Virus record (IMG/VR): IMGVR_UViG_3300010160_000117
Location: 1-36,464 of that record
Origin: a virus
Reading direction: 5' to 3' (one strand)
Length of the DNA: 36,464 nucleotides
Shown here: positions 1-36,464 of the stretch, piece after piece
Position numbering within the stretch: position 1 is the first letter of the stretch
Layout of the letters: each line of letters begins with the position of its first letter
Notes under the pieces: generated by a model
The model's input: the letters and a program-made list of their open reading frames with translations, nothing else
Told to the model about the DNA's origin: nothing
Database searches by the model: none
Position numbers and translations under genes: made by a program

Positions 1-274
1 ATTTTGTATGATCGTAGCTTTTCTTATTAAAAAGACCTTCAATTAAAAGACCTTTTGATATGCAGTTATTTATTATTCGTCTTATGCTCTGTCGATTCCA
101 ATAAGGAAATAGCTCAGAAAATGCTCTCTGGCTGTTGTAGGTCCAATAATGGCCTTCTTTATAGTTATGTCTATTTGCTATGTTTTGAATCGTCCAGAAA
201 TGTATATTATTTAAAAATATTGCCTCATCCACACCATACTTTTTCGCTATCTCTGTATTAAAGCTATGTAACAT
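1..274 (-). CDS. Replisome-organiser-like replication protein, N-terminal part (continues at the window's other end)
   Basis: This is the first 87 codons of a protein that runs off the left edge and continues at 36451 down to 35937. ATG is at 274, and an AGGG lies about 9 bases upstream. The protein begins MLHSFNTEIAKKYGVDEAIF, followed by WTYNSQRAFSELFPYWNRQS and IRRIINNCISKGLLIEG. This is the winged-helix pattern found at the start of many phage replication initiators or replisome organisers (a DnaD/DnaT-like role, recruiting DnaB helicase to the origin). Reading across the 13-base end overlap gives KKSYDHTKWYALTS with no frame change. The full product would be about 262 aa. The helicase gene follows directly. 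The fold assignment is from pattern memory; the junction is seen directly. Confidence 0.85.
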   Translation of the reverse strand, partial: MLHSFNTEIAKKYGVDEAIFLNNIHFWTIQNIANRHNYKEGHYWTYNSQRAFSELFPYWNRQSIRRIINNCISKGLLIEGLFNKKSYDHTK

Positions 275-516: not shown

Positions 517-544
517 TTGACAGACAAATTAAATGTGCTACAAT
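517..544 (+). promoter_or_regulatory. Strong sigma70 promoter with extended -10
   Basis: TTGACA at 517-522, a 16-base spacer and TACAAT at 539-544, preceded by TG at 536-537 (extended -10). It matches the consensus closely. Transcription would start near 551 and run rightward into 551-990, where no plausible ORF exists. The product is therefore predicted to be a non-coding RNA. Confidence 0.7.
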
Positions 545-640
545 TTTACCCATATTCGCCGACTTCTATTCGGTTAATGTATCCAGGGCCTACGGCCACG
601 ACTAGCCTGGTGCTGATACACCTGGTTAGTCGATCATACT

Positions 641-708: not shown

Positions 709-784
709 GTAAAGATTTACGGCCCCGGCAGCGTCTTGTACATATGATCATCCCGGATGACCCTCTTGGGGCCACCATGTTGCC
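709..784 (+). repeat. Tandem structured repeat, copy A
   Basis: It begins GTAAAGATTTACGGCC and ends GGGGCCACCATGTTGCC. Outer stem GGCCCC (721-726) pairs with GGGGCC (768-773). Inside, TCATCC (748-753) and GGATGA (755-760) form an inverted repeat. Copy B follows at a period of 87 to 90 bases with the same flanks and a different but still pairing stem. Confidence 0.6.
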
Positions 785-795
785 ACATGCACATT

Positions 796-874
796 GTAAA
801 GATTTATGGCCTCTAGGCGGTCTTTCGGATGTGAGATCCCCGGGGGACCATCATCTAGAGGCCACCATATTGCC
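796..874 (+). repeat. Tandem structured repeat, copy B
   Basis: It begins GTAAAGATTTATGGCC and ends GAGGCCACCATATTGCC. Outer stem GGCCTCTAG (808-816) pairs perfectly with CTAGAGGCC (855-863). GGTC (819-822) can pair with GACC (846-849), and GGAT (827-830) with ATCC (836-839). Against copy A, the fifth base pair of the outer stem changes from C-G to T-A on both sides, a compensatory change that suggests selection on structure. The end of this copy also supplies the -35 region of the tRNA-like gene. Confidence 0.6.
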
Positions 875-896
875 GACATCAGCAAAATGGTATAAT
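870..896 (+). promoter_or_regulatory. Promoter of the tRNA-like gene
   Basis: TATAAT at 891-896 is preceded by TG at 888-889 (extended -10). A TTGCCG lies at 870-875 with a short 15-base spacer. The expected start, about 7 bases after the -10, coincides with G903, the first base of the acceptor stem. The gene would then be transcribed with little or no 5' leader. Confidence 0.55.
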
Positions 897-902
897 AACA
901 AC

Positions 903-991
903 GACCCCGTAGCTCAGTCTGGTAGAGCCGTTTAGCTCCTAGAGCGCCGCTTTTTATCGGTAGGTCGTTGGTTCGAATCCAACCGGGGTCA
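903..991 (+). tRNA. tRNA-like gene with aberrant anticodon region (possibly degenerate, or an attachment-site relic)
   Basis: The acceptor stem is perfect (GACCCCG 903-909 with CGGGGTC 984-990, discriminator A991). The T arm is perfect (GTTGG, TTCGAAT, CCAAC at 967-983), and a good D arm is present (912-915/925-928). The middle is abnormal: about 17 extra bases (929-945) include a second GAGC. The helix around CTTTTTAT is GCCG/CGGT with an 8-base loop. A single added G between 957 and 958 would restore a normal lysine-type TTT anticodon arm; alternatively CCT at 938-940 is the anticodon and the TTT helix is a long variable arm. CCA is not encoded. The 3' end overlaps the stop codon of the minus-strand ORF that ends at 989. 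Confidence 0.6.
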
Positions 992-2071: not shown

Positions 2072-2094
2072 ACATCCCCCGTTAATCTTAATAA

Positions 2095-2123
2095 ATTATA
2101 ATAATTATTGCTTGCTTAGTCAA
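2095..2123 (-). promoter_or_regulatory. Leftward promoter of the Cro-like operon
   Basis: On the minus strand, TTGACT (2123-2118), a 17-base spacer and TATAAT (2100-2095), close to consensus. It overlaps the rightward promoter so that the two -35 boxes interleave. Its -10 lies in ATTATAATAA (2095-2104), which is the inverted copy of TTATTATAAT (2131-2140). Confidence 0.75.
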
Positions 2124-2140
2124 TCTAAATTTATTATAAT
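2112..2140 (+). promoter_or_regulatory. Rightward early promoter
   Basis: TTGCTT (2112-2117), a 17-base spacer and TATAAT (2135-2140). Transcription would start near 2147, 37 bases before the first early gene. The 10-bp inverted repeats containing both -10 boxes are likely operators, giving mutually exclusive transcription. Confidence 0.75.
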
Positions 2141-2183
2141 AGCTGTACGTCAATACCGACGGTTTAAATAAGGTAGATTACAA

Positions 2184-33521: not shown

Positions 33522-33700
33522 TCATTAGCGAAAAACAAATAATGCAGTTAATGAATCAGTTGCGTGACCACATAGTATTCCATGAGCAGATGGCATGCCT
33601 GGGAGCCATCAACAAAAAATATATTGATTGGTTGCGCGAATTACGCGAAGAAATAACCAACCAGCAATTCGAAGAATTAAAGGAAATCAAGAATGATTGA
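33518..33700 (+). CDS. Small hypothetical early protein
   Basis: A 60-residue product from ATG 33518 (ATGA overlap): MIISEKQIMQLMNQLRDHIV, then an amphipathic helix DWLRELREEITNQQFEELKE. Helical, one Cys, no membrane segment. It overlaps the next microgene. Unknown. Confidence 0.65.
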   Translation: MIISEKQIMQLMNQLRDHIVFHEQMACLGAINKKYIDWLRELREEITNQQFEELKEIKND

Positions 33701-33815
33701 CTACGAGAAGCACAAAATTTATTACCATCCTTTCGGTTTTGTATTCTGGGGCGGATTTTTTATTGGAGCCGGATTAACTGGGGTATTATTGACCTTAATT
33801 AGGATGATCGAATGA
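33693..33815 (+). CDS. 40-residue membrane microprotein (MIDYEK series, member 1)
   Basis: ATG 33693 lies inside the end of the preceding gene. Product: MIDYEKHKIYYHPFGFVFWG, then a Gly-rich hydrophobic segment (GFFIGAGLTGVLLTLIRMI). It starts with the same six residues (MI-D/N-YEK) as the next two genes. Its TGA overlaps the next ATG. A tandem family of small proteins. Confidence 0.6.
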   Translation: MIDYEKHKIYYHPFGFVFWGGFFIGAGLTGVLLTLIRMIE

Positions 33816-33907
33816 TTAACTACGAGAAAATATGCAAATGGATTAATAAACCAATCGTTGCGTTTTTTATCGGCAGGTTTATGTGTGCATTAAATTTGTA
33901 TATATGA
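33812..33907 (+). CDS. 31-residue microprotein (MIDYEK series, member 2)
   Basis: ATG 33812 (ATGA overlap). Product MINYEKICKWINKPIVAFFI, then GRFMCALNLYI, partly hydrophobic. It shares the MI-N-YEK start with its neighbours. Unknown function. Confidence 0.55.
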   Translation: MINYEKICKWINKPIVAFFIGRFMCALNLYI

Positions 33908-33918
33908 GGACATTTAAA

Positions 33919-34107
33919 ATGATTGATTACGAAAAACTAAAAAAATTAATAAATACTATATCTGAAATGACCCCTGATAATGGATCCGAATATTCTATGG
34001 GCTACCACGCGTCATTAATGTATATACGCAGATTTTTAGACGGAAAGGAGCCGTTTCAATTGAAAATAAACAAATTAGTATTTGCAATAGAAGAACACAA
34101 AGAATAA
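33919..34107 (+). CDS. 62-residue protein (MIDYEK series, member 3)
   Basis: ATG 33919 has AGGA 9 bases upstream and is preferred over an upstream ATG in the same frame because it restores the shared start MIDYEKLKKLINTISEMTPD. The rest (YSMGYHASLMYIRRFLDGKE) is soluble and helical. Function unknown. Third of three tandem genes with the same N-terminus but different bodies. Confidence 0.65.
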   Translation: MIDYEKLKKLINTISEMTPDNGSEYSMGYHASLMYIRRFLDGKEPFQLKINKLVFAIEEHKE

Positions 34108-35940: not shown

Positions 35941-36464
35941 GACTTGTCCTCGTGCTCACCGGAAATTACTTTTTTAATGTTAATCGGCCTCATGAGGACG
36001 TAGAAGTCGTTCTGTCTTGTTTTTCCGTTCACAACATAAGGGTCAATAAGCCATCGGCAACGACTTGAAATGAAACTCAGGTAGTCAAAAAGGGTTACAT
36101 CTTCATTCTCAAATAAATTTAAAGCTATATTTAACCTGGTTATTACTTTTGGTGACGCTATTTTTGGGCATGGAACTTCATTGTGTTTAGCCCAAGTCTT
36201 GAATATTTCAAAATTATCGTTTTCTGCGGGCCTGTCTCTCTTGTTTACTATCTGTTGTTTACTATCTGGTATAGGTTGGTTGGTTTCAACCACATGATTG
36301 GTTGGATCCAACCAATGGTTTTCGGTATTTTCCGAAATAGATTGGTTAAAACCAACCAATGAGCATTCATGCGGTATACAGAGGTTTTCTGTGTTGTCTG
36401 AAGGCAATGTGGTTCCAAATAAATCTAAACAAATGCTTGTTAAGGCATACCATTTTGTATGATC
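35937..36464 (-). CDS. Replisome-organiser-like replication protein, C-terminal part (starts at the window's other end)
   Basis: This completes the protein begun at 1-274. In frame from 36464: DHTKWYALTSICLDLFGTTL, then a low-complexity Asn/Gln/Thr/Pro-rich linker (about residues 110-165, with paired NQSI/NQPI repeats), and a C-terminal helical domain (LNIALNLFENEDVTLFDYLS). The first frame-internal start (TTG 36407) is not the true start. The C-terminal domain probably contacts the helicase encoded immediately downstream. Confidence 0.85.
   Translation of the reverse strand, partial: DHTKWYALTSICLDLFGTTLPSDNTENLCIPHECSLVGFNQSISENTENHWLDPTNHVVETNQPIPDSKQQIVNKRDRPAENDNFEIFKTWAKHNEVPCPKIASPKVITRLNIALNLFENEDVTLFDYLSFISSRCRWLIDPYVVNGKTRQNDFYVLMRPINIKKVISGEHEDKS
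36452..36464. repeat. 13-base terminal direct repeat (map closure)
   Basis: The last 13 bases equal bases 1-13 (ATTTTGTATGATC). Joining them gives one continuous reading frame, so the repeat is an assembly overlap or permuted end, not a biological repeat with flanking sequence. Confidence 0.9.

What the first reader, a model, noticed from the sequence alone, without database searches (positions are those of the whole stretch)
709..874. Two tandem repeats whose stems covary
Copies A and B share flanks (GTAAAGATTTAyGGCC ... GGCCACCATrTTGCC) but differ inside. The outer stem is GGCCCC/GGGGCC in A and GGCCTC/GAGGCC in B, extended to 9 bp, a compensatory C-G to T-A change. Inner stems differ as well but still pair. 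A duplication kept under structural selection is the simplest account.
Basis: partly seen in the sequence, partly recalled or inferred. Interest (0 to 1): 0.7.

Follow-up and report, generated by a model that had tools for sequence, protein, structure and literature searches.

The report
Duplicated RNA hairpins beside phage tRNA
An uncultured phage carries two diverged copies of a short hairpin element in a non-coding stretch between a strong promoter and an oddly built lysine-type tRNA gene; they look like paired parts of a small structured RNA, but no relatives were found, so neither structural selection nor function is proven.

Summary
Units A (709-784) and B (796-874) are 69% identical, with sharp boundaries. 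Their ends are nearly invariant (2 differences in 31 columns) and their interiors diverged (21 in 45; Fisher P=1e-4). The outer stem survives in both: 8 pairs in A (two of them G-U), 9 in B, with two double changes (C-G/U-A and G-U/U-A). The inner stem does not covary: B's 10-bp inner helix keeps only 3 contiguous pairs in A, and A alone folds no better than shuffled sequence (z about -0.1 to -0.7; B about -3). Pair shuffling does not reject chance (126/500), and no homologue was found in viral or genome collections, so 'kept under structural selection' is only partly supported.

Context: a near-consensus sigma-70 promoter (517-544) fires through a gene-free, strongly structured stretch (552-902, z=-4.5) into a tRNA at 903-990. 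That tRNA is tRNA-Lys-like, with an inserted D-arm hairpin and an 8-nt anticodon loop. Each stem is followed by ACCA, like a tRNA acceptor end. Best guess: a duplicated RNA processing or acceptor-mimic element in a tRNA precursor transcript. Coding, replication origin, tRNA-family, GOLLD and ROOL membership were tested and rejected. Modest interest.

The parts
517..544 (+). sigma-70-type promoter TTGACA-16-TACAAT with TG before the -10; predicted start about 551
   Evidence: 11 of 12 consensus matches; sequence; consensus match only, no expression data
552..640 (+). upstream structured segment: hairpins 552-580, 587-597 and 599-632
   Evidence: z=-4.06 on + strand versus -1.89 on - strand
709..784 (+). 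repeat unit A: 5' flank GTAAAGATTTAC, outer stem 721-728/766-773 (8 bp incl. 2 G-U), ACCA at 774-777, 3' flank TGTTGCC
   Evidence: free fold not better than shuffles
796..874 (+). repeat unit B: 5' flank GTAAAGATTTAT, outer stem 808-816/855-863 (9 bp, 10 with U807-A864), inner stem 819-828/840-849, ACCA at 864-867, 3' flank TATTGCC
   Evidence: z=-2.9 to -3.4 on + strand
870..896 (+). possible own promoter of the tRNA: TTGCCG-15-TATAAT, which would start at about 903
   Evidence: sequence only; spacer of 15 is short and the tool's scan (16-18 nt) did not list it
903..990 (+). tRNA-Lys-like gene with a D-arm hairpin insertion (GAGC-CGUUUA-GCUC) and an 8-nt loop CUUUUUAU where the Lys anticodon loop should be
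   Evidence: RF00005, 46.9 bits; ARAGORN cannot assign it; alignment with phage tRNA-Lys genes; best database matches are tRNA-Lys

Best explanation
Units A and B are paralogous copies of a small RNA element in the non-coding 5' part of a phage tRNA transcript started at the 517-544 promoter. The element is a helix brought together by the nearly invariant ends GTAAAGATTTAyGGCC and GGCCACCATrTTGCC. On the RNA the helix closes a variable interior and leaves a 3' ACCA directly after a 7-10 bp stem, i.e. the layout of a tRNA acceptor end. The most likely way it works is as a tRNA-acceptor-like processing signal: RNase P (or another acceptor-stem enzyme) binds stem plus RCCA and cuts before G721 and G808, giving one or two stable hairpin RNAs of about 57-60 nt with CCA ends and freeing the downstream tRNA-Lys-like RNA. 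Shown: the duplication, the retained outer stem, ACCA in both copies, the + strand bias of the pairing, the promoter consensus match and the neighbouring tRNA. Inferred: transcription, cleavage, and any role of the products.
For: A/B alignment with invariant ends and diverged interior. Outer stem kept with two double changes, P=0.019. G-U pairs (two in A's outer stem, three in B's inner stem) hold only on the + strand, and B folds better there (-32.2 versus -26.8 kcal/mol), pointing to + strand RNA rather than DNA or the opposite transcript. Strong + strand promoter match. Whole 552-902 segment z=-4.5 on +. tRNA directly downstream. Short hairpins with a stem and RCCA are accepted by bacterial RNase P in vitro (PMC11221534, PMC12710915). 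A's acceptor-like ends GGCCCC/GGGGCCACCA have the form of tRNA-Ile2 acceptors (own knowledge), and a phage tRNA with CAU anticodon in L019 shows the same GGCC...GGCCACCA form.
Against: A stem of 6 bp or more followed by NCCA is not rare in this genome (15 found, 10.4 +/- 3.1 expected), and ACCA is shared by descent, so it counts once. Neither unit resembles tRNA sequence (best local alignments P=0.2 and 0.9) or matches RF00005; there is no T arm. A is not unusually stable. On the minus strand the whole 552-902 segment is about equally structured (z=-4.1). RNase P does not explain conservation of GTAAAGATTTA or TrTTGCC. No homologue and no expression data exist.
Confidence: 0.3

Rival explanations
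1. RNase III-type processing hairpins: B (lower stem 9-10 bp, asymmetric internal loop, upper stem 10 bp, about 60 nt) resembles T7 R-site hairpins, and A is a weaker copy; cutting there would separate the 5' leader from the tRNA.
For: B's predicted fold; position between a promoter and a tRNA. The T7 comparison is from own knowledge and was not tested.
Against: A lacks the upper stem. RNase III needs no conserved single-stranded flanks, yet the flanks are the most conserved part.
Confidence: 0.2
2. A cis element of the opposite (leftward) transcript that runs from the repressor-like genes to the O-like/DnaB genes, such as a nut/put-type antitermination or leader element, or a protein-binding DNA site (GTAAAGATTTAC is itself nearly palindromic).
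For: The region lies upstream of the leftward O-like gene; on the minus strand the conserved flank reads TAAATCTTTAC, which contains a boxA-like TCTTTA; minus-strand fold of 552-902 has z=-4.1.
Against: G-U pairs become A-C mismatches on the minus strand and B is less stable there; an apparently intact + strand promoter and a tRNA on the + strand argue for the other direction; the boxA resemblance is weak.
Confidence: 0.15
3. A decaying, functionless tandem duplication. The matched stem changes arose by template-switch correction of a quasi-palindrome, not by selection.
For: B's arms form a perfect 10-bp inverted repeat while A's are imperfect; A is not stably folded; pair-shuffle control 126/500; no conservation elsewhere.
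Against: Substitutions avoid the ends (2/31 versus 21/45, P=1e-4), which neutral decay does not predict; 8 of 9 outer pairs kept (P=0.019).
Confidence: 0.2
4. Fossil or shortened tRNA genes: A and B are tRNA genes that lost their D, anticodon and T arms but kept the acceptor stem and CCA.
For: Stem plus ACCA, neighbouring tRNA, GGCC acceptor form; a phage tRNA in L019 happens to have the same 5' flank and GGCC start.
Against: No similarity to 65 tRNAs beyond shuffles, no tRNA model match. The L019 match was picked by the pattern itself and no other L019 tRNA has that leader.
Confidence: 0.08

Closest known systems
GOLLD and ROOL RNAs (large structured phage RNAs beside tRNA islands)
   Same: non-coding, highly structured, in a phage genome next to a tRNA (PMC12286853)
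   Different: far shorter (about 350 nt before the tRNA), built round two paralogous hairpins, no match to the Rfam models
Minimal RNase P substrates (hairpin with acceptor stem and RCCA; pseudoknot substrates)
   Same: stem of 7-10 bp with a free 3' ACCA and a 5' leader (PMC11221534, PMC12710915)
   Different: those are designed or plant-virus structures; A and B have no T-arm equivalent and cleavage is untested
Phage tRNAs that counter host tRNA nucleases (tRNA-Tyr against retron-Eco7, tRNA-Lys against PrrC)
   Same: phage tRNA-Lys-type gene behind a strong promoter (PMC11555353)
   Different: here the tRNA has a D-arm insertion and an aberrant anticodon loop, and changing the anticodon or mutating stem-loops of the published tRNA-Tyr abolished its effect; A and B are not tRNAs
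T7-type RNase III processing hairpins
   Same: B's two helices with an asymmetric internal loop (own knowledge of T7 R sites)
   Different: A lacks the upper helix; conserved flanks unexplained; not tested

Membership tests
tRNA (RF00005) | cloverleaf/T-arm signal above gathering score | tested here: not met
   A and B: no RF00005 match at E up to 10; only 903-991 matches
tRNA (RF00005) | acceptor stem followed by a discriminator base and CCA | tested here: met
   A 721-728/766-773 + ACCA 774-777; B 808-816/855-863 + ACCA 864-867; not rare by chance
GOLLD / ROOL and any other Rfam family | match to the covariance model | tested here: not met
   no non-tRNA family at gathering score; weak sub-threshold hits only
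RNase P minimal substrate | stem plus 3' RCCA plus 5' leader | tested here: met
   sequence
RNase P minimal substrate | cleavage by RNase P at the 5' base of the stem | not testable with these tools
   needs in vitro cleavage
RNase III hairpin | two helices with an internal loop in both copies | tested here: not met
   B yes, A no
Protein-coding repeat | substitutions concentrated at third codon positions | tested here: not met
   hand count on alignment A2: about 7/8/8 over codon positions 1/2/3 in the one open frame; the frame runs into the tRNA
Replication origin iterons | located with the initiator-gene repeats | tested here: not met
   the iteron-like palindromes lie at 36276-36360 inside the O-like gene, not here

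The most novel reading that the evidence does not exclude
A new kind of phage small RNA: duplicated mini-RNAs that mimic a tRNA acceptor end (stem plus ACCA) and are released with an altered tRNA-Lys-like RNA, together acting as decoys for host enzymes or toxins that attack tRNA ends or anticodon loops.
Probability: 0.06. Interest if true: 0.75.

Novelty: new member of a known kind. Interest (0 to 1): 0.3.

Why it matters
Phage tRNA loci are known to hold anti-defence tRNAs and orphan structured RNAs. A duplicated hairpin unit with conserved ends and acceptor-like tails next to a structurally altered tRNA-Lys would be a small, easily tested case of tRNA mimicry or tRNA-precursor processing by a phage. 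If ordinary, it is a caution that a single compensatory pair between two copies is weak evidence for selection.

Tried and rejected
Homologues by BLAST in phages and plasmids: only tRNA or chance matches. DNA patterns in viral contigs: chance matches only; they were read and, folded. Pattern in genome contigs: none. Neighbouring proteins as bait: Sak4 one distant contig, DnaB none, portal about 80 relatives kept, but their replication modules differ and none carries the units. A covariance model of A+B over 1.4 Mb of relatives found A, B, a pattern-selected tRNA and one match at E=3.5, and nothing in tRNA-matched loci. Portal search in genome contigs gave only two contigs in MAGs, host not identified. 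Coding repeat: rejected, flat over codon positions. Homology of the spacer after B with that after A (which would make the tRNA promoter a third copy): P=0.18, not supported. Similarity of the 552-640 hairpin to A or B: not significant. A possible pseudoknot (GGCAGC/GUUGCC in A, GGCGGU/AUUGCC in B, with a C-G to U-A change) was noted by eye but needs a 5-nt loop to span a long helix and competes with G-U pairs and B's inner stem; not claimed.

Full report
What the window is. The window is a whole 36,464-base IMG/VR contig. It codes for a P22-type portal, a terminase, an O-like/DnaB replication pair and a Sak4/SSB/Cas4-exonuclease set. Both ends share the 13-mer ATTTTGTATGATC, and a minus-strand O-like reading frame continues across the junction, so the genome very probably closes to a circle. 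Named phages are at best about 24% identical in the portal, while IMG/VR holds at least 229 relatives. The host is unknown.

The observation. Units 709-784 and 796-874 align with 24 substitutions and one 3-nt gap in 80 columns. The boundaries are sharp: the 30 bases before A and before B match at 3 of 30. Substitutions avoid the ends (2 of 31 columns) and fill the interior (21 of 45; Fisher P=1.3e-4). The outer stem has 8 pairs in A (6 Watson-Crick, 2 G-U) and 9 in B, with two pairs changed on both sides (17/64 C-G to U-A, 19/62 G-U to U-A) and one on one side. Keeping at least 8 of 9 pairs despite six substitutions in the arms has P=0.019 under random substitution. The inner helix of B is not kept in A beyond chance (P=0.69). 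A folds no better than shuffles, B does. The pair-dealing control over all pairs is not significant (126/500).

Surroundings. No gene is apparent on either strand from about 275 to 989 (the one + strand frame over the units runs into the tRNA and its substitutions are flat over codon positions). On the + strand a TTGACA-16-TACAAT promoter with TG before the -10 lies at 517-544. The stretch 552-902 is strongly structured on either strand (z=-4.5 on +, -4.1 on -), with hairpins at 552-640, then A, B and a tRNA at 903-990. No terminator was found after the tRNA. The G-U pairs in A's outer stem and B's inner stem exist only on the + strand, and B is 5 kcal/mol more stable there. This favours a + strand RNA element over a DNA cruciform or the leftward transcript.

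The tRNA. ARAGORN cannot assign it. Aligned with phage tRNA-Lys genes found through its T arm (L224, L225) it reads as a class I tRNA-Lys-like gene with a 13-17 nt insertion in the D arm (a small GAGC/GCUC hairpin), a 5-nt variable loop and an 8-nt loop CUUUUUAU at the anticodon. Its best database matches are tRNA-Lys. Whether it decodes is doubtful (inference).

What it most likely is. Both units put ACCA directly behind the closed stem, as in a tRNA acceptor end, and sit in what looks like a tRNA precursor. Bacterial RNase P accepts such small substrates in vitro (PMC11221534, PMC12710915). I therefore favour a duplicated acceptor-like processing or small-RNA element, at 0.3. The case is weak: stem plus NCCA occurs 15 times in this genome against 10.4 expected, the units do not resemble tRNAs, and the conserved flanks GTAAAGATTTA and TrTTGCC remain unexplained. 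RNase III hairpins, a leftward-transcript or protein-binding element, and a decaying duplication polished by template switching are live rivals.

Relatives. Sequence, pattern, protein-neighbour and covariance-model searches found no other copy. The nearest matches were chance. One tRNA in L019 shares the 16-base pattern and the GGCC...GGCCACCA form, but it was selected by the pattern, and no other tRNA of that locus has the leader.

Known kinds. It is not a member of tRNA, GOLLD, ROOL or any other Rfam family. By place it resembles the orphan structured RNAs near phage tRNA islands (PMC12286853) and phage tRNA loci used against tRNA nucleases (PMC11555353), but no shared sequence or function was shown.

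Verdict. A real, diverged duplication with a conserved outer stem, most likely part of a structured phage RNA next to a tRNA. Structural selection is plausible, not demonstrated. Interest 0.3.

Noticed in passing
window 903-990: tRNA-Lys-like gene with a hairpin inserted in the D arm and an 8-nt anticodon loop CUUUUUAU; ARAGORN reports it as unassignable with a 4-base anticodon.
   Followed up: partly
L224:303-389 and L226:1039-1125: A phage tRNA called tRNA-Leu(tag) by ARAGORN looks like tRNA-Lys(UUU) with a D-loop insertion (loop CUUUUAA), similar to the window's tRNA.
   Followed up: partly
window 36270-36361: Cluster of nested palindromes (TTGGTTGGATCCAACCAAT and variants) inside the O-like gene, the strongest fold in the window (z about -5); probable replication origin iterons.
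   Followed up: partly
window 1-13 and 36452-36464: Identical 13-bp ends; the O-like reading frame continues across the junction, so the contig probably circularises although IMG/VR calls it linear.
   Followed up: yes
window 2081-2141: AT-rich 23-bp direct and inverted repeats between the divergent genes at 2071(-) and 2184(+), likely repressor operators.
   Followed up: no
window 33691-33709, 33810-33828, 33917-33935: Three copies of a 19-nt repeat GAATGATTGACTACGAGAA spaced about 107-119 bp among small + strand ORFs.
   Followed up: no
L019:1278-1365 (-): A tRNA with CAU anticodon (probably Ile) in a tRNA-rich phage contig carries exactly the GTAAAGATTTAC leader and GGCC acceptor start of units A/B; probably chance.
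   Followed up: partly
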